Below, piece by piece: positions 343 to 23,313 of a stretch of 25,022 nt of DNA. Source of the stretch: a virus; the IMG/VR virus record IMGVR_UViG_3300012950_000533, positions 1-25,022 of that record; one strand, 5' to 3'. Below the pieces are notes generated by a model. The model had not been told where the DNA came from, did not search any database, and was given only the letters and a program-made list of their open reading frames with translations. Position 1 is the stretch's first letter; each line of letters opens with the position of its first letter. Both the position numbers and the translations under genes were made by a program.

Positions 343-660
343 TTAGTTTTCCTCAAATTCGTTCGGGTTATCAGTTAAATGCACAATCTTGTTTCCATTT
401 TCATCGAAACAGCCACATTGGAATATGCCTTTGTCATTTACTGTGGTTTTCCCATGAATGGGGCAAACAGCAAATTCCATCGTATTGGGCATACTTTCAA
501 CTTTCTTAAACCATGCTTTAGTTCCATATATGCTGCGAAGATGGGCCATTGGTCCACCGGGATCATAGCACGGACAAAGGCTGTGTTTGTCATACATTCC
601 GTGCTCTGGGCAATTACTGACCGCCATTTTGACCATTTGTCGCCTTTGTTTTCTATTCAT
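343..660 (-). CDS. Small protein with two CPxHG...CxC zinc knuckles
   Basis: 105 residues, not recognised as a named family. It carries the same pattern twice: CPEHG followed by CPC near residues 17-31, and CPIHG followed by CGC near residues 66-84. Each could bind one zinc ion through two Cys pairs or three Cys plus His, so it looks like an internal duplication of a zinc ribbon half. The N-terminus is basic (NRKQRRQ), compatible with nucleic-acid binding. ATG at 660 has a good AAGGAG site and overlaps the stop codon of the cytochrome gene by four bases (ATGA), so the two are probably translationally coupled. Function unknown. Confidence 0.75.
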   Translation of the reverse strand: MNRKQRRQMVKMAVSNCPEHGMYDKHSLCPCYDPGGPMAHLRSIYGTKAWFKKVESMPNTMEFAVCPIHGKTTVNDKGIFQCGCFDENGNKIVHLTDNPNEFEEN

Positions 661-986
661 TGTGTCTCCTTGAAAGTTTTCAGATAAGCGACCATAGCAC
701 CAATGCGGTTGTCTGTCCAGTCAGAGGCCGGCGGCATCAGCGGCGACTTACCCACTGCAAGGCCGCCGCTCTTAATCACTGTCTTTATCTGCGCGTCTGT
801 GCGCGTGGACCAAAAGGCCGAGTCTTGAAAATTGGCCGGTTTTGGTGACATAGATGACGCTGCGGGGCCATCGCCATTTCCAGCAGCGCCATGGCACACT
901 GCGCACTGGGCTGCATAATCGGAGGGTGCATCGGCATGCGCCGATGCCGGGCCTCCAAGAAAAAAGATAATAAGTAGTCTACTCAC
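657..986 (-). CDS. Exported class I c-type cytochrome
   Basis: I start this gene at the GTG at 986: it has a GGAG site six bases upstream and gives a clean signal peptide (residues 1-18, hydrophobic RLLIIFFLGG, Ala-rich cleavage site ASAHA). The frame is open further upstream, but that part only runs antiparallel to nothing useful inside dUTPase. The 109-residue product has the covalent haem site CAVCH at residues 28-32 and a probable axial Met84 in SPLMPP, the arrangement of small monohaem cytochromes c. Such proteins carry electrons in the periplasm and need the host Ccm or Ccs machinery for haem attachment. The gene overlaps the dUTPase end by eight bases and the next gene by four, so it is embedded in the phage operon, not a contig artefact. 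A cytochrome c in a phage is unusual. Electron partner unknown. Confidence 0.85.
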   Translation of the reverse strand: MSRLLIIFFLGGPASAHADAPSDYAAQCAVCHGAAGNGDGPAASSMSPKPANFQDSAFWSTRTDAQIKTVIKSGGLAVGKSPLMPPASDWTDNRIGAMVAYLKTFKETQ

Positions 987-1440
987 CTGTGCTCCCCAGC
1001 GCTCCGTCACCTCTGTCACTGATCGTAATCGGATACCAGCCGTATAAGTCCTCATTTCCTCTGCGCTCCATGGCGCGGAAGTGAACTACCGGAGTCATCA
1101 CGACCTGTGCAATCTTCGAATGAGAGTCGATAACTTGTGTGCTTTTTCCAATGTTGTGAAGGTTTACAAATACCTCGCCGTCATATCCAGAATCAATCAC
1201 ACACGCGCCGACAACCAAGCTTCGCTTAGATGCCACGCTGGAACGGTTCTTGACCTCCAGCATATACCCGTGGGGCACTCCGAAACTAAGACCAGTTGGG
1301 AGCAGGGCGCTTTCGCCCGGCTCGATGGTCACTGATTTATTATCCGCTAGACTGAAATGAACATCTAGGCCGGCATCGCTAGGATTGCCACGGGTGGGCG
1401 GGTGTACATTCAAGTGCGTTCTGCACCACTCGATCATCAT
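979..1440 (-). CDS. dut: dUTP diphosphatase (trimeric dUTPase)
   Basis: 153 residues with all five conserved dUTPase motifs in order: DAGLDV (motif 1), NRSSVASKR (motif 2), GVID-type segment ACVIDSGYDGEV (motif 3), KIAQ (motif 4) and the C-terminal P-loop-like GDGALGSTG (motif 5). It hydrolyses dUTP to dUMP and pyrophosphate, keeping uracil out of DNA and supplying dUMP for dTMP synthesis. In homotrimers the motif 5 tail closes over a neighbouring active site, and that tail is complete here. The start is an ATG overlapping the previous gene's stop (ATGA); a second in-frame ATG follows directly. Works with the deaminase-like protein and RNR in the same module. Confidence 0.95.
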   Translation of the reverse strand: MMIEWCRTHLNVHPPTRGNPSDAGLDVHFSLADNKSVTIEPGESALLPTGLSFGVPHGYMLEVKNRSSVASKRSLVVGACVIDSGYDGEVFVNLHNIGKSTQVIDSHSKIAQVVMTPVVHFRAMERRGNEDLYGWYPITISDRGDGALGSTGE

Positions 1441-13764: not shown

Positions 13765-14076
13765 CTAACGTCGGGGAGTAGTCGATGGGTGCGGTCGAAG
13801 CTTCCAGTGGCCGGGGATTACGCGACTATTACGGCCGCGACCTTCCACATGAGCCGGAACCCAGATGTATGCATCACTGCTTGCATGGGGATGACGGCCC
13901 TCGCGGCGATGCCAGCGAGCACGACGCTCTCCCGGCGGTACCTCAAAGACCCAGTGATAGTCTACAGTGATTTGAACTGTAGGACGAGTGCTGCGTTCTG
14001 CAACGCTTGGACATGGAGCCGTGCCGGGATGAGCGATAGCCATTGAGCCGGCAAAAATAGTGGCAAGTAGAAACAT
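13765..14076 (-). CDS. GC-rich exported protein with YxWxPxH / PGHW motif
   Basis: 103 residues. Residues 1-15 are a signal peptide (FLLATIFAGSMAIA). The mature part is Arg/His-rich and ends with YIWVPAHVEGRGRNSRVIPGHW, resembling the short YxWxxGxW repeats of bacterial periplasmic proteins. ATG at 14076 has AGGAGG six bases upstream and a perfect promoter before it, so it is well expressed on paper. Its GC-rich composition contrasts with the AT-richer replication genes, suggesting recent acquisition from a host. Function unknown; acts in the periplasm or at the outer envelope. Confidence 0.7.
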   Translation of the reverse strand: MFLLATIFAGSMAIAHPGTAPCPSVAERSTRPTVQITVDYHWVFEVPPGERRARWHRREGRHPHASSDAYIWVPAHVEGRGRNSRVIPGHWKLRPHPSTTPRR

Positions 14077-14139: not shown

Positions 14140-15339
14140 TTAAATTGCTCTAAACTCTTCGTTAATCTTGCTCCACTGATAGGCAATATACTTATCTGTT
14201 GAGCCTTTAAGTTGCTTTACAAACATGATTCTCTCGATCCTTGGCATACCAGCTTTCTTATAGTTTTCACTCTTGTTCCAAGCTGTCATTTCTGCAAGAC
14301 AACTCTCGCGCATCTTTTCTAGGCTGCTCAACGAAGTGACATCCTTTTTTCCCTCGCCGCAGCGAACAACAAGCCAATAATCTTCTCGCGCATGAGTGAA
14401 TTCTTCTCTAGCAAACCACCTATCAGTAACGCGGAGGCGCCATGTCTGCTTGTGATGTCCCTTGACAATAAGCATCTGCACATCTACTTCTTGGTTTGTC
14501 GGATCAAAAGCCTCGCCGGGGAAAAATCCAAGCCACTGTTGATTAATACGATTGTTATCGGGAAGGGGGATTGGGTCTGATCGGTCTGGCGAAAAAGCCT
14601 TTTTGGCCATATCGGTGCGAGTAGACTTCATATTGTCGCCAACGTATGTTGGCTTGTGTTCTAGAATCCACTGTGATGCCCACTCGACATTCTTCTCGGG
14701 TGACATGGCAGCGTCAATAATACCATTCTGGACATACAAATCATGTGCTACTGCAAGCTGGCTTACGATGTCTGCTCCGCTTTCCGGCTCGGGGGCCTCG
14801 CCATCGTCATGATTCGAAAGTTCTGAAATATGGAAGGCATGCCATTCTTTTTGAGCGTCCGTAAGCTCCCCGCCAATCTCCAAAAAGGCCCCAATTGACT
14901 TACTGAGATTTCCTCGGGCTTGCCCCATCACATGACATCTAGAGCGCTTGTTACCCGACGAGGGATACATCTTGCCATCGTCATCAAAAGTCCAGCCCAT
15001 GACAACACGCTTCTGGCGCTGGCTTCGTGTGTAAATTTCATTGTATAACCACTCGACCCTATCATCATCCTCACAATTTTCGCGAGTCTGCGTCTTCTCA
15101 TATCGAGGAGCGTCATGGCCAGCAAGATTCGACTTGAAATCATATTCAGCGTGAATAGCCACCGTCAAGTCGTGTTCTATAATATATTCCCAGATCTTGC
15201 GCTGTCGCAAGTCTGTATCTTTTGCCGGATTGTTATATCCCAGAATAGTAAGACGATCGACCTTGCTAGCATAATAATCGGCTCGCTGTCTAGATTTCCT
15301 CTTGGCTTCAAGATCTGTTAAAACGTGTTTGTTACTCAT
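14140..15339 (-). CDS. Unknown 399-residue protein of the R-M operon
   Basis: Not recognised. It has a basic N-terminus (residues 12-20, KRKSRQR), a Glu/Asp-rich stretch near 86-94, a GNKRSR segment at 129-134 (a faint echo of ParB-like 'GNxRxR' loops), an acidic hinge around 175-190 and an aromatic C-terminal half. No signal peptide or membrane helix. Its start overlaps the methyltransferase end by eight bases, so restriction enzyme, methyltransferase and this protein are translated from one message. Position suggests a part in DNA modification, restriction or its control, but the sequence does not show it. Confidence 0.65.
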   Translation of the reverse strand: MSNKHVLTDLEAKRKSRQRADYYASKVDRLTILGYNNPAKDTDLRQRKIWEYIIEHDLTVAIHAEYDFKSNLAGHDAPRYEKTQTRENCEDDDRVEWLYNEIYTRSQRQKRVVMGWTFDDDGKMYPSSGNKRSRCHVMGQARGNLSKSIGAFLEIGGELTDAQKEWHAFHISELSNHDDGEAPEPESGADIVSQLAVAHDLYVQNGIIDAAMSPEKNVEWASQWILEHKPTYVGDNMKSTRTDMAKKAFSPDRSDPIPLPDNNRINQQWLGFFPGEAFDPTNQEVDVQMLIVKGHHKQTWRLRVTDRWFAREEFTHAREDYWLVVRCGEGKKDVTSLSSLEKMRESCLAEMTAWNKSENYKKAGMPRIERIMFVKQLKGSTDKYIAYQWSKINEEFRAI

Positions 15340-16201
15340 TATTTTTTCCTATCATTAAAATTTCGCGGGCCTTCTTGGCTTCAAAACCATCTTCCACCTT
15401 TTTTCGGCGCCCTGCGGTGTATGTTACGTCAAAGTAAGTTAATTCATTTTCGCCTACTCTGTCTTCAAAGAAGTTGTCACCAACGTCTCGATTACTCATC
15501 ATAGCATAAGCGCCCTTTTCTGTCGAATCATTTAAAAAATTAATCACGCCCTGCTGCATTTCATCATCAAAATCAACACCATACTGAGTGAACGATCCCC
15601 GGTAGGGAGGATCAAGGAACACATAAGTATCAGCGCAAACTTCGTCCAAAGTGTTTTCGTAGCTCCCCGACATTAGTTTACAATTTTGCAGTGCGTAGTG
15701 CCATGCCATGACATTCTCGGGATCATAGATTTTCTCTTTCTGGTTCAAGAGGCCAGCAGGTGTACCAAACCGATTGTTGGTATTTTTGTTGATTTGCCAG
15801 ATACCATTAAACCCTGTTTTCATCAAGAAATAGAGTACTGCTGCTTCCTTGGTCTGTGTGGAGCCCTGATAGTGATATGCGTGCCAGTCCCGAATTTTAT
15901 AGTAAAACTCCTTTCTGGAACTTTTGTCCATCGGGATAAACTGACTCTCCAAGCTATCCACATGTGCCATGAAAATATCAACTTCGTCTTTTACTGCCTT
16001 ATAGATTTTCATAATAGACGGATTTGAATCATTTAGTACAAAGTTTGCAGTCGGGTTCTTTTGGTAGGCCCAAACAAACATTGCGCCGGCCCCAACAAAG
16101 GGCTCAACATATTTACCAAAAGTCTTTGGCAAGTGATCACCATATTTCTTGATCATCTTAGTCTTGCCGCCGGCCCACATGAATAGCGGTTTCATCTTCA
16201 T
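15332..16201 (-). CDS. DNA adenine methyltransferase, D12 (alpha) class
   Basis: 289 residues from the ATG at 16201 (GGAGA site nine bases upstream); a second start at Met3 is possible. The N-terminal FMWAGGKTKMI, motif I EPFVGAGA (33-40), NKNTNNRFGTPAG (139-150) and catalytic DPPY (197-200) define the Dam/D12 class, which methylates adenine N6 in sites such as GATC or those of partner restriction enzymes. It overlaps the EcoRI-like gene by four bases (ATGA), the layout expected of a restriction-modification pair. Target unknown. Note the EcoRI enzyme is paired in nature with a differently arranged methyltransferase, so a shuffled pairing is possible. Confidence 0.93.
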   Translation of the reverse strand: MKMKPLFMWAGGKTKMIKKYGDHLPKTFGKYVEPFVGAGAMFVWAYQKNPTANFVLNDSNPSIMKIYKAVKDEVDIFMAHVDSLESQFIPMDKSSRKEFYYKIRDWHAYHYQGSTQTKEAAVLYFLMKTGFNGIWQINKNTNNRFGTPAGLLNQKEKIYDPENVMAWHYALQNCKLMSGSYENTLDEVCADTYVFLDPPYRGSFTQYGVDFDDEMQQGVINFLNDSTEKGAYAMMSNRDVGDNFFEDRVGENELTYFDVTYTAGRRKKVEDGFEAKKAREILMIGKNNE

Positions 16202-16737
16202 GAATGTAATCTCCGAATTTCGCCTTCAATAAAGCGAGTCATAGTCTCTTCAATAAACTGATCCGCAAACCCAGTTTCGCTAAGAAACACTGACGGACCT
16301 CCTTGTCTGAGTTTTCCATATTGGCCCCTCACGGGGCGATATAGGGCATTGAAAATAGGTTTTCCCGGTAAAGTGCCTAGGCCCGTAGCAAACGTCACCA
16401 GAGGACACCTAGGGTTAGTTTCCACAATATGATGGTAGTTCTTAAACCAGCGCTCGATGGCGTTGCCGCGAGGGCCCTGATGTTTTGCTTCAAATGCCGA
16501 AAGAACTTTACCATTATAGGTCCAAACTCCACCATCCGGTGCGCATGCCCCAATACCTTCAAATAGGTATTTCTTTGGCAGCTTGTAGTGTCTCTCTAAG
16601 CGAGGGTGCCTTGATTTAAGCTTCTCAAACACAGACTTAGAAATGCGTCGAACCTGTTTGTCGATCTTATCCGAAGCTGGGCTCGATGCTGTCGTGCCCG
16701 GCTGGATGCCTCCCCTGTATCCATCGTGATATCCCAT
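16198..16737 (-). CDS. EcoRI-like type II restriction endonuclease
   Basis: I start at the ATG at 16737: it overlaps the upstream stop (TAATG) and has AAGGA five bases before it; the frame continues to a GTG at 16806 inside the previous gene. The 179-residue product carries the EcoRI active site almost verbatim: PDGG (67-70, metal Asp68), EAKHQG (83-88, Glu83 and Lys85), then GNAIER (91-96), which in EcoRI includes a DNA-contacting Arg. In EcoRI about 23 residues forming part of the DNA-embracing arms separate EAKHQG from GNAIER; here only two do. The enzyme is also shorter than EcoRI (277). From knowledge of the family it would cut a palindrome with AATT in its core. It is coupled to an adenine methyltransferase downstream. 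Confidence 0.85.
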   Translation of the reverse strand: MGYHDGYRGGIQPGTTASSPASDKIDKQVRRISKSVFEKLKSRHPRLERHYKLPKKYLFEGIGACAPDGGVWTYNGKVLSAFEAKHQGPRGNAIERWFKNYHHIVETNPRCPLVTFATGLGTLPGKPIFNALYRPVRGQYGKLRQGGPSVFLSETGFADQFIEETMTRFIEGEIRRLHS

Positions 16738-17012
16738 TATTGTCCTTGCGGTTGGTGGTGTTTGTGGGTATGCGTCATATCCGTTAGAATAATGATCGTC
16801 AGGCACACTACTACTGTGGCCGCAACAATCGGCGCGACAGCCCGTGGTGGTGGTGGTCGGTGACGGGGTGGTGGCGGCGGCGGCGGACGGCGGGCATGTA
16901 GTTCCAAGCCCGTAGACGCTTCCGCTGCATCGATCCGGTCAAGACCGATGGCCATTGCCGGTGAACTAGTTGCCACAATCAGTGCGGCCATTGTCATAAT
17001 CTTCTTAAGCAT
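16737..17012 (-). CDS. Exported proline-rich membrane protein
   Basis: About 91 residues. AGGAGG precedes two adjacent ATGs (17015 and 17012); the second has the better spacing. A signal peptide (MAALIVATSSPAMA) is followed by a short linker, a run of prolines and arginines (RPPPPPPPRHRPPPPR), a second hydrophobic helix (VAPIVAATVVVCLTIIIL) and a His-rich tail (THTHKHH). The DNA is GC-rich with GGT/GGC triplets, unlike its neighbours. Its stop overlaps the restriction gene start. If the first helix is cleaved, the protein would be anchored by the second. Function unknown; phage envelope proteins with proline linkers can span the periplasm. Confidence 0.7.
   Translation of the reverse strand: MLKKIMTMAALIVATSSPAMAIGLDRIDAAEASTGLELHARRPPPPPPPRHRPPPPRAVAPIVAATVVVCLTIIILTDMTHTHKHHQPQGQ
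16844..16892. repeat. GC-rich triplet low-complexity tract
   Basis: Short GGT and GGC triplet runs encode the proline/arginine stretch of the exported protein on the minus strand. Tracts like this are prone to slippage, so length may vary between relatives. Confidence 0.6.
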
Positions 17013-17037
17013 CATTACCTCCTAATGCTGTTTGATA

Positions 17038-19476: not shown

Positions 19477-20316
19477 TTACTCCTGTGTTTGAATTTCTGA
19501 TGAGCTAGCGATTATGTACCCATAATCTTCGTCGTAATCTGTCGAATGAATCTGTACATTCGATATTAAATGTTGTTCTCGGTTGTTTACGATTTTTCCT
19601 TTCAACTTCGCGAACAACTTGCCATCATTAGCAAGCTTCTCTTCATTGATAGCATAAATATAACATTTTTCGTTCACGTTGTCAAGGGGGTAAAACAACT
19701 TTTCTTCATTTTCTTTTGGTGATGTGATCCCGATCGTTGCAATTCTAGCTGTGACGAGTGTTTCGTCGGAATTGCGATATATCGGTTGATTGTTCGTGTA
19801 AACATTGATCATATGAATTGTCGAAACCACCAAGTTGTTCAAGATATCATAATACCCCACAACCGGCACGTTGTCAATGATGTTTTCCAAAATATCATTT
19901 TTTACAATGTACATTTTCTCAAAAACACCAGACCTGACATATTCTTGCAGAACATGGAACACTACCCTTTCGTGCATCTGTGCTCTGTTGGCCAAAAGCG
20001 AAGTGTCTGGCGCAACGTATAATATACTTACTTTGGCTCTCTGGATGGCCTCTAAGATCTTGAGACAGATCGATGAAATCATGGAGCCGCCCGATACGAT
20101 GAACATAATATCATCGCCGGTTCGTATTCCACGGAAAAAGTTTTTAAAAGATGGGCACTTTTCTTCGTATTCTTCAACGGTTGAATAGGCCGGCACGACG
20201 AAGCAGCCCTTTTGCTTAGGCAAGTCGTTGTCTATCTTATAAATTTGATATTGGGAATACTCTGCAAAGCCATCTGCAATTCGACAGCCGGCAGAACCCA
20301 CACCTATAACCTTCAT
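19477..20316 (-). CDS. Divergent tubulin/FtsZ-like protein
   Basis: 279 residues. The N-terminus KVIGVGSAGCRIADGF matches the first beta strand and nucleotide loop of FtsZ (KVIGVGGxGxN). Residues 70-81 (DIMFIVSGGSMIS) sit where FtsZ and tubulin have the GTP signature GGGTGS/T, but here it is reduced to SGGSMIS. After it come VSILYVAPDTSLLANRAQMHE and VFEKMYIVKNDIL, parallel to FtsZ 'VVTxPFxFEGxxR' and 'DxLIVIPNDxL', then a helix like H7. The catalytic NxDxxD/E loop is not evident, and the protein is shorter than FtsZ. I infer a member of the superfamily with altered or lost GTPase. Phage tubulins such as PhuZ centre DNA in the cell. ATG at 20316 follows a strong promoter. Confidence 0.65.
   Translation of the reverse strand: MKVIGVGSAGCRIADGFAEYSQYQIYKIDNDLPKQKGCFVVPAYSTVEEYEEKCPSFKNFFRGIRTGDDIMFIVSGGSMISSICLKILEAIQRAKVSILYVAPDTSLLANRAQMHERVVFHVLQEYVRSGVFEKMYIVKNDILENIIDNVPVVGYYDILNNLVVSTIHMINVYTNNQPIYRNSDETLVTARIATIGITSPKENEEKLFYPLDNVNEKCYIYAINEEKLANDGKLFAKLKGKIVNNREQHLISNVQIHSTDYDEDYGYIIASSSEIQTQE
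19657..19685 (-). promoter_or_regulatory. Promoter-like sequence inside the tubulin-like gene (downstream)
   Basis: TTGACA (19685-19680), 17-base spacer, TATATT (19662-19657), with TGT before the -10. Points toward the 82-residue gene and ssb. Confidence 0.55.
19849..19877 (-). promoter_or_regulatory. Promoter-like sequence inside the tubulin-like gene (upstream)
   Basis: TTGACA (19877-19872), 17-base spacer, TATTAT (19854-19849). It begins with the same TTGACAACGTG as the site at 19657-19685. Coding constraint could explain it, so it is less certain than the intergenic promoters. Confidence 0.4.
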
Positions 20317-22722: not shown

Positions 22723-23313
22723 CTATAACCACCCCTCGATTGATGTTCTCATGCTTTGCTCGCTCCAACCATAGATTCCGTATCTGAGAATCATTTCTCT
22801 GTCGATAACGACCATAGTTGGCCAGCCACCTAGCGGATATCCGGTGATCCCCTCTGGATCGTAGACTTCATCTCTGGTTGCCGACAATATCGGATCTTCC
22901 AAGCCATGGGTTGAAGCCCAGTCTTGCAGATCTGCTTGATCTGTGTCGTTTCCTTGACGATCCTGTACCAGAATGGTAATCCAGATAAAGTTGTCCTCGC
23001 CATAATCCTGCTTGAACGTTTCGGCATAGGGGGCTGCGCTATTGCATGGCCCGCACCACATTGTCGAAAAGTCTACTACAATGACTTTACCATAATGTTG
23101 ATAAAGTTCTACTTGTTCTCCGTGCTGATCCATAAAACTGAAATTGCACGGATTTTGATCGAATAGCTGGCCGCACTCTTCCCATGTTGCCCATGGGTAC
23201 GGATCGGCTGGCTCTGTCTCAGTAACACCTACGTTACTATCCTCTGTTTCTAACTCTGCTGGGCCGCATGCCCCACATGCGACCGCAAATATAAATGCTA
23301 AATATTTTAACAC
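22723..23313 (-). CDS. Thioredoxin-fold (TlpA/AhpC-like) lipoprotein
   Basis: 196 residues, GTG start at 23313 with AGGAGG upstream; the ATG two bases earlier runs into a stop. Residues 1-16 are a signal with a lipobox at AVAC (Cys13) or GAC (Cys16). A Glu/Thr-rich linker follows, then the redoxin domain with the active site WCGPC at 86-90, the strand VIVVDFS before it, and a probable cis-Pro in GGWPT near 168. It would be a membrane-anchored periplasmic thiol reductase or oxidase, perhaps for cytochrome c maturation or for disulphides in the exported enzymes. It resembles redoxins of Myxococcota-like bacteria (recollection). Periplasmic redoxins are rare in phages. Confidence 0.85.
   Translation of the reverse strand: MLKYLAFIFAVACGACGPAELETEDSNVGVTETEPADPYPWATWEECGQLFDQNPCNFSFMDQHGEQVELYQHYGKVIVVDFSTMWCGPCNSAAPYAETFKQDYGEDNFIWITILVQDRQGNDTDQADLQDWASTHGLEDPILSATRDEVYDPEGITGYPLGGWPTMVVIDREMILRYGIYGWSEQSMRTSIEGWL

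What the first reader, a model, noticed from the sequence alone, without database searches (positions are those of the whole stretch)
14140..16737. Phage-borne EcoRI-like restriction enzyme overlapping a D12 adenine methyltransferase
The 179-residue protein has PDGG, EAKHQG and GNAIER, the active-site signatures of EcoRI, but the arm segment between EAKHQG and GNAIER is two residues instead of about 23. It overlaps an adenine methyltransferase by four bases and an unknown 399-residue gene follows with an eight-base overlap. A complete type II R-M unit inside the replication region of a lytic phage is unusual and could degrade host or competing DNA. GAATTC occurs at least five times in the window (4841, 5810, 8392, 14398, 17967), so the phage does not simply avoid that site. 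The methyltransferase class differs from the one that normally partners EcoRI.
Basis: partly seen in the sequence, partly recalled or inferred. Interest (0 to 1): 0.88.

Follow-up and report, generated by a model that had tools for sequence, protein, structure and literature searches.

The report
Phage-borne EcoRI-like restriction–methylation pair
A family of mostly marine phages carries a shortened relative of the restriction enzyme EcoRI next to a protective DNA methylase; the evidence points to the sequence AATT as its target, and two related phages that carry the enzyme without a detectable methylase have no AATT at all in the DNA available.

Summary
Window 16198-16737(-) encodes a 179-aa nuclease. 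It overlaps by 4 bp a D12 adenine methyltransferase (15332-16201), which overlaps by 8 bp a 399-aa orphan ORF.

The nuclease is a distant EcoRI homologue: a 54-sequence profile finds only EcoRI in the PDB (8e-7), and profile-profile E is 3e-12. PD...ExK, Gln87 and GNAIER are invariant in 69 homologues. The arm is missing throughout this phage family, which was not found in bacteria or plasmids.

The nuclease and methylase co-occur widely: of 84 loci, 45 are immediately adjacent (28 with the same 4-bp overlap), and one is a fused ORF. The 399-aa gene has no relative and is not part of the unit.

The target is probably AATT, not GAATTC or GATC. (i) EcoRI's inner-AATT contact residues persist. 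(ii) The methylase replaces two GATC-reading residues of Dam (K9→Ile/Met, R124→Gln). (iii) AATT is selectively depleted in nuclease-bearing phages (median O/E 0.45 versus 0.94). Two related phage lineages with the nuclease but no detected methylase have 0 AATT (339 and 233 expected); ten isolates lacking the nuclease have 0.78-0.99.

Host or rival DNA destruction is inferred, not shown. A fold search did not retrieve EcoRI.

The parts
16198..16737 (-). EcoRI-like restriction nuclease, 179 aa (phrog_2400)
   Evidence: ORF; phrog_2400 2.3e-34; profile A3 hits only EcoRI in the PDB at 8e-7; hhalign vs EcoRI family 3.3e-12; AlphaFold2 pLDDT 90.7
16534..16539 (-). P67-D68, aligned with EcoRI P90-D91 (catalytic Asp)
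   Evidence: P 69/69 and D 69/69 homologues; aligned to EcoRI D91
16483..16491 (-). E83-A84-K85, aligned with EcoRI E111-A112-K113 (ExK); Q87 aligned with EcoRI Q115
   Evidence: E, K and Q invariant in 69/69 homologues
16450..16467 (-). GNAIER 91-96, aligned with EcoRI 140-145 (AATT-contacting segment); the EcoRI arm 117-139 is reduced to 2 residues
   Evidence: all six residues invariant in 69/69; EcoRI contacts from PMC4081073
15332..16201 (-). D12-class (Dam-like) adenine-N6 DNA methyltransferase, 289 aa
   Evidence: PF02086 1.1e-32; TIGR00571 177.5 bits vs cut-off 114.85; DpnM (2dpm) 5.7e-24
16178..16180 (-). methylase Met8 at the position of EcoDam Lys9 (reads G1 of GATC)
   Evidence: Ile/Met in 49/53 and non-Lys in 51/53 module methylases; Lys in all GATC Dams aligned
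15794..15796 (-). methylase Gln136 at the position of EcoDam Arg124 (reads base pair 4 of GATC)
   Evidence: Gln in 53/53; Arg in EcoDam, DpnM and P1 Dmt
15602..15613 (-). methylase catalytic motif DPPY (197-200)
   Evidence: invariant D197 P198 P199 Y200
16198..16201 (-). ATGA stop/start overlap of nuclease and methylase
   Evidence: same 4-bp overlap in 28 of 65 loci with a methylase in reach
14140..15339 (-). 399-aa neighbouring ORF of unknown function; judged NOT part of the unit
   Evidence: no family, no relative in phages or IMG/VR or in any module locus; single-sequence model pLDDT 35

Best explanation
This is a phage-encoded type II restriction-modification unit built from a minimal, arm-less EcoRI homologue and a D12 adenine methylase, with AATT as the most likely common target. 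Proposed working: during infection the two proteins are made from overlapping genes. The methylase puts N6-methyl on the second A of AATT in new phage DNA, so progeny genomes enter the next cell already protected. The nuclease cuts unmethylated AATT (one site per few hundred bp) in the host chromosome and in competing phage or plasmid DNA, shutting the host down, feeding nucleotides to replication and excluding rivals. In some relatives the methylase gene is not found and the phage seems instead to be protected by having erased every AATT from its genome. Shown by computation: homology, conserved active site, conserved gene pair, residue changes in the methylase, AATT depletion tied to the nuclease. 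Inferred: cleavage activity, identical specificity of the two enzymes, the methylated base, and the biological role.
For: EcoRI homology; it survives masking of GNAIER (4e-9) and of all motifs (2e-4), with controls at 0.13 or worse. Active-site and AATT-contact residues invariant in 69 homologues. Methylase within 50 bp in 45/84 loci, always downstream; modal ATGA overlap. Nuclease-methylase fusion ORF in L062. Where D12 is absent next door, L077 has an overlapping MT-A70 methylase, and the L027 phage has a module-type methylase about 18 kb away. Co-divergence of the two proteins: Mantel r=0.70, 0/2000 permutations. Methylase K9 to I/M and R124 to Q, with the roles of these residues from PMC10073500. 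AATT: median O/E 0.45 in 70 nuclease loci vs 0.94 in 39 controls, p=5.7e-16. AATT is 0 of 339 expected in G004 (111.9 kb) and 0 of 233 in G006 (73.8 kb, 86.7% identical to G004). Of 255 AATT sites in S-RIM12 (no nuclease), 8 (3%) are kept in aligned S-RIM2 (nuclease) vs 30% for other AT-only tetramers, Fisher 7e-26; S-WAM1 to G004 keeps 0 of 80. In G004, Asn before T uses AAC 203: AAT 0, and 757:542 otherwise. Ten control isolates verified to lack the nuclease, with three positive controls ringing.
Against: No biochemistry exists for any member that I could find. Foldseek against the PDB gave no hit below 1e-3 and EcoRI is not among the 50 listed. The single sequence fails Pfam's EcoRI cut-off (13.4 vs 22 bits). 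AATT depletion is not universal: the window itself is 0.86, G007 0.90, S-CREM2 0.77. In principle it could come from host R-M systems correlated with nuclease carriage. Groups are not fully matched by phylogeny, and ATAT and GATC also differ between groups, less strongly. Some nuclease loci with no methylase found keep AATT (G011 0.66; L061/L063 0.74-0.81), perhaps because the contigs are fragments.
Confidence: 0.77

Rival explanations
1. R-M unit with EcoRI's full 6-bp site GAATTC.
For: All inner-site contact residues of EcoRI are kept.
Against: It is AATT as a whole, not only GAATTC, that vanishes (0 in 112 kb and 0 in 74 kb). The methylase is a Dam-size enzyme whose known GATC relatives read 4 bp. 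EcoRI Arg203, recalled from memory to read the outer G, aligns with Asn/His/Tyr in the family.
Confidence: 0.07
2. The methylase is an ordinary GATC Dam and the nuclease a separate, unrelated gene that happens to sit beside it.
For: The methylase is over the TIGR00571 dam cut-off; orphan Dam-type methylases are common in phages.
Against: Lys9 and Arg124, which read G1 and base pair 4 of GATC, are replaced in the module methylases but kept in EcoDam, DpnM and P1 Dmt. The pair is adjacent in 45 of 84 loci, with a fusion and correlated divergence.
Confidence: 0.05
3. AATT depletion is the work of host restriction systems, and the phage nuclease has another target; the module is only linked to the same hosts.
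For: Cyanophages also lack CCGG and are poor in GGCC and AGCT whether or not they carry the nuclease, which shows that other forces act on palindromes.
Against: AATT is the tetranucleotide palindrome with by far the strongest nuclease-linked difference. S-RIM2 and the nuclease-free S-PM2 share host WH7803 but have O/E 0.23 vs 0.99. The residue evidence independently points to AATT.
Confidence: 0.1
4. The nuclease is now catalytically idle or a homing/mobility nuclease that spreads the cassette rather than attacking host DNA.
For: The pair is scattered over distant phages and positions; intervening ORFs vary.
Against: Catalytic residues are invariant in 69 homologues; a homing enzyme would not require genome-wide loss of a 4-bp site or a dedicated methylase.
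Confidence: 0.05

Closest known systems
EcoRI family (EcoRI, RsrI; Pfam PF02963)
   Same: Aligned D91/E111/K113 catalytic residues, Q115, N141-A142 and R145; GNAIER identical; homology by profile.
   Different: 179 vs 277 aa, arm 117-139 absent, below the Pfam cut-off, partner methylase of another class, phage-restricted, predicted site AATT.
MluCI / Tsp509I (AATT cutters), named from memory; the review lists MluCI beside EcoRI and MunI as possible mosaics (PMC4081073)
   Same: Same predicted tetranucleotide.
   Different: Their sequences were not on hand; relatedness not tested.
Chlorella virus PBCV-1 R-M systems CviAI (GATC) and CviAII (CATG) (PMC7248222)
   Same: A virus carries its own 4-bp R-M with m6A self-protection and a nuclease that threatens unmethylated DNA.
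   Different: Algal giant virus, different targets; methylation is the protection, with no site-free variant in the passages read.
Burkholderia phage KL3 EcoRII-C/M.EcoRII/Vsr module (PMC3091744)
   Same: Phage-borne REase plus methylase, with host or rival DNA destruction proposed.
   Different: Temperate P2-like phage, C5 methylase, EcoRII family, CCWGG.
S-CREM2 gp11 'restriction endonuclease EcoRI' and S-RIM2 SWTG_00030 (phrog_2400)
   Same: Same protein family, 38-39% identical to the window protein.
   Different: Annotated only or hypothetical; no paper found discusses its function, and the S-CREM2 paper does not mention EcoRI.
Paracoccus marcusii plasmid pCP157_17 EcoRI-family REase with D12-class methylase
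   Same: EcoRI-family REase beside a D12-domain methylase.
   Different: Bacterial plasmid, 238 aa, passes PF02963; its methylase belongs to another D12 subgroup.

Membership tests
EcoRI family (PF02963) | Score above Pfam gathering threshold | tested here: not met
   13.4 bits vs 22, E=0.04
EcoRI family (PF02963) | Homology by profile methods | tested here: met
   8e-7 to EcoRI chains only; hhalign 3.3e-12; controls at 0.13 or worse
EcoRI family (PF02963) | Catalytic D91, E111, K113 | tested here: met
   D68, E83, K85 invariant in 69 homologues and aligned
EcoRI family (PF02963) | AATT contacts N141, A142, R145 (and Q115) | tested here: met
   N92, A93, R96, Q87 invariant; roles of 141/142/145 in PMC4081073
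EcoRI family (PF02963) | DNA-embracing arm 117-139 | tested here: not met
   2-residue segment in the window; about 2-3 residues in all homologues
EcoRI family (PF02963) | Fold match to EcoRI | tested here: inconclusive
   alpha-beta-beta-beta-alpha-beta order in a pLDDT 90.7 model, but no Foldseek PDB hit below 1e-3
EcoRI family (PF02963) | Cleavage at G^AATTC | not testable with these tools
   needs assay; the evidence favours AATT
Type II restriction-modification system | REase and MTase encoded together | tested here: met
   4-bp overlap here; 45/84 loci adjacent; fusion in L062
Type II restriction-modification system | MTase with intact catalytic motif | tested here: met
   DPPY invariant
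Type II restriction-modification system | Both enzymes read the same site | tested here: inconclusive
   both lines point to AATT, no assay
Dam (GATC) methylases | D12 domain and dam model | tested here: met
   PF02086 1.1e-32; TIGR00571 over cut-off
Dam (GATC) methylases | GATC-reading Lys9 and Arg124 | tested here: not met
   Met and Gln
phrog_2400 | Profile match over full length | tested here: met
   2.3e-34, residues 7-177 of 179

The most novel reading that the evidence does not exclude
A phage-restricted family of minimal EcoRI-type nucleases with AATT specificity is used by lytic marine phages to destroy host and rival DNA. Its carriers reach self-immunity in two alternative ways: a Gln/Met-switched Dam-type methylase, or complete evolutionary erasure of the 4-bp site from the genome, which would be a restriction enzyme without a methylase.
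Probability: 0.55. Interest if true: 0.9.

Novelty: new variant of a known kind. Interest (0 to 1): 0.82.

Why it matters
A 2014 review states that type II restriction enzymes 'rarely occur on bacteriophages' (PMC4081073); here is a phage-specific family recovered from more than 80 environmental contigs and 65 phage records. It gives a function to phrog_2400, hitherto 'unknown function'. It predicts a methylation mark on cultured cyanophages that is easy to check. It shows how a restriction enzyme might be carried without a methylase, by clearing its site from the genome, so that the site preference of an uncharacterised phage nuclease can be read from its owner's DNA. It also turns a phage's missing tetranucleotides into evidence about phage-phage warfare, not only about host defence.

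Tried and rejected
The 399-aa third gene as part of the unit: no homologue anywhere, uninformative model. Orthologue in bacteria or plasmids: none in two genome-contig scans or in plasmids. GATC as target: residue changes, and no comparable depletion (GATC medians 0.72 vs 0.91; AATT 0.45 vs 0.94). Fold search as confirmation: not informative. Defence-family library: only generic methyltransferase models. The idea that AATT depletion follows absence of a methylase in a simple way: fits G004/G006 but not G011 or L061/L063, so not claimed as a rule. S-CREM2 as a clean example of the pair: its methylase is of the Lys9/Gln124 type shared with orphan methylases of S-N03 and ACG-2014f and lies 0.9 kb away, so it may not be the partner. 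The MT-A70 search of the methylase-less contigs is uninformative because nothing rang in the controls; the N6_N4 search was negative with working controls.

Full report
What is there. The window is a 25,022-base virus record with phage replication genes: a DnaE-type polymerase, an SSB, a DnaB-type helicase, a RecA/UvsX-type recombinase, a 5'-3' exonuclease and a ribonucleotide-reductase-like ORF (the last named by eye only). On its minus strand lie a 179-aa ORF (16198-16737), a 289-aa D12 methyltransferase (15332-16201) overlapping it by ATGA, and a 399-aa ORF (14140-15339) overlapping the methylase by 8 bases.

The nuclease is an EcoRI homologue without the arm. The single sequence only grazes Pfam EcoRI (E=0.04, below cut-off), but it belongs to phrog_2400 (2e-34). 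With 54 relatives the profile finds EcoRI chains, and nothing else significant, in the whole PDB (8e-7). Against an alignment of six plasmid-borne EcoRI-family enzymes hhalign gives 97.6% and E=3.3e-12 and aligns D68/E83/K85/Q87/N92/A93/R96 with EcoRI D91/E111/K113/Q115/N141/A142/R145. Reversed and column-shuffled controls stay at E>=0.13; with GNAIER masked E is 4e-9, with all motifs masked 2e-4. P67, D68, E83, K85, Q87 and GNAIERW are invariant in 69 aligned homologues, and EAK and GNAIER are nearly contiguous in all of them. AlphaFold2 gives pLDDT 90.7 and the order helix-strand-strand-strand-helix-strand, with the ExK on the third strand and Arg96 near the start of the next helix. Foldseek did not return EcoRI (best a Mus81-Eme1 chain at 0.044), so the fold test neither confirms nor refutes.

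Distribution. IMG/VR holds at least 82 relatives; 65 isolate records carry one, all Synechococcus phages: S-RIM2 and a few others including S-BM1 and S-CREM2. None was found in about 85,000 bacterial and archaeal species genomes at the sensitivity of two scans or in plasmids, so it looks phage-restricted.

The pair. Of 84 loci, 45 have a D12 methylase within 50 bp downstream, 28 with the identical 4-bp overlap. One ORF (L062, 472 aa) is a nuclease-methylase fusion. In L077 the partner is an overlapping MT-A70-type methylase. In the L027 genome (190 kb) the nuclease has no adjacent methylase, but a module-type D12 methylase is encoded about 18 kb away. Nuclease and methylase distances correlate (Mantel r=0.70, 0/2000 permutations), though shared phage ancestry alone could do this. 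The 399-aa gene has no relative in any of these loci or collections and is dropped from the unit.

Target, line 1 (residues). In EcoDam, Lys9 reads G1, Arg124 reads base pair 4, and Leu122/Pro134 read base pair 3 (PMC10073500). In the module methylases Lys9 is Ile/Met (49 of 53; Lys in 2) and Arg124 is Gln (53 of 53), while Pro134 and an aliphatic residue at 122 are kept; EcoDam, DpnM and P1 Dmt, all GATC enzymes, have Lys and Arg. Inference: A2 and T3 are kept, base pairs 1 and 4 are changed; Gln suits an adenine opposite position 4, which gives AATT. This is the tetranucleotide contacted by the conserved GNA..R segment of EcoRI (PMC4081073).

Target, line 2 (genome composition, independent of line 1). 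Among nine nuclease-bearing and seven nuclease-free phages, AATT stood out: mean O/E 0.38 vs 0.91. With 70 nuclease loci and 39 control contigs the medians are 0.45 and 0.94 (p=5.7e-16); ATAT (0.85 vs 1.05, p=4e-10) and GATC (0.72 vs 0.91, p=5e-6) also differ, far less in size, and CCGG goes the other way. In G004 AATT occurs 0 times in 111,864 bp against 339 expected; in G006 0 of 233 in 73.8 kb. These two share only 86.7% identity, so the loss is being maintained; G005 is the same phage as G004. AATT and CCGG are the only absent tetramers in both, and CCGG is also absent from most nuclease-free T4-like cyanophages. Between S-RIM12 (no nuclease) and S-RIM2 (nuclease), 255 AATT sites in aligned DNA leave 8 conserved (3%) against 30% of other AT-only tetramers (7e-26); S-WAM1 to G004: 0 of 80. 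In G004 Asn codons before T are AAC 203, AAT 0; before other bases 757 and 542: a synonymous-level signature. The ten named control isolates were searched whole and lack the nuclease, while three positive controls ring. S-RIM2 and the nuclease-free S-PM2 share host strain WH7803 but differ 0.23 vs 0.99, which argues against host restriction as the cause.

How it would work. In phages that keep the methylase, including this one (AATT O/E 0.86), m6A at AATT protects progeny and the nuclease attacks unmethylated host or rival DNA. Why methylase-bearing phages such as S-RIM2 still lose AATT is probably the cost of incomplete methylation, as is known for self-R-M in bacteria; that is inference. In G004/G006 no D12 or N6_N4 methylase was found in 112, 90 and 74 kb (the MT-A70 search has no working control), and total site loss would make one needless. 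The contigs are incomplete, so a methylase may be missing from view.

What is known. Viral R-M systems exist in chlorella viruses (PMC7248222) and a temperate Burkholderia phage (PMC3091744); a review calls REases rare on phages (PMC4081073). The S-CREM2 genome record names its copy EcoRI, but the S-CREM2 paper does not discuss it. No paper in the library searched describes AATT loss in cyanophages, though subscription papers are not held.

Verdict. The pair is a real, conserved phage R-M unit, a new variant of a known kind. The AATT target is well supported but not assayed; the role in host takeover or competition is inference. The site-erasure variant is the most interesting part and rests on two related lineages.

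Noticed in passing
L134 (S-RIM14), L135 (ACG-2014d), L130 (G007), most T4-like cyanophages: Other tetranucleotides are also fully missing: TTAA in S-RIM14 (0.00), TCGA in ACG-2014d (0.00), CTAG and CGCG (0.00) and GATC (0.07) in G007, CCGG in nearly all T4-like cyanophages. By analogy these phages may carry other sequence-specific nucleases.
   Followed up: no
window 19477-20316 (-): 279-aa ORF with an N-terminal GVGSAGC Rossmann/tubulin-like motif and no Pfam hit; orthologues sit directly upstream or near the module in L002, L006, L008 and L053.
   Followed up: partly
L062:1881-3299: Single 472-aa ORF fusing the EcoRI-like nuclease to the D12 methylase.
   Followed up: yes
L077:4661-5703: Same nuclease family but with an overlapping MT-A70-type methylase as partner, a natural partner swap.
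   Followed up: partly
L004 (S-CREM2), L105 (S-N03), L106 (ACG-2014f), L107 (Klebsiella phage BIS47): A third methylase class with Lys9 kept but Arg124 to Gln, mostly without a nuclease; its specificity should differ from both GATC and AATT.
   Followed up: no
L104 (Paracoccus marcusii plasmid pCP157_17): EcoRI-family REase overlapping a D12-class methylase by one base, a bacterial case of the unusual pairing.
   Followed up: partly
window 657-1055 (-): 132-aa ORF with a CAVCH haem-binding motif, apparently a small secreted c-type cytochrome; unusual in a phage.
   Followed up: no
window 22723-23313 (-): 196-aa ORF that looks like a lipoprotein with a thioredoxin-like CGPC motif.
   Followed up: no
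window 16737-17015 (-) and 13765-14076 (-): Two short ORFs with signal peptides, one proline-rich, flank the three-gene stretch; no informative family match.
   Followed up: no
L003:5620-6675, L006:8845-9795, L064:7703-8722: ParB/DUF6551-like genes recur close to the module, one of them between nuclease and methylase in S-RIM2.
   Followed up: no
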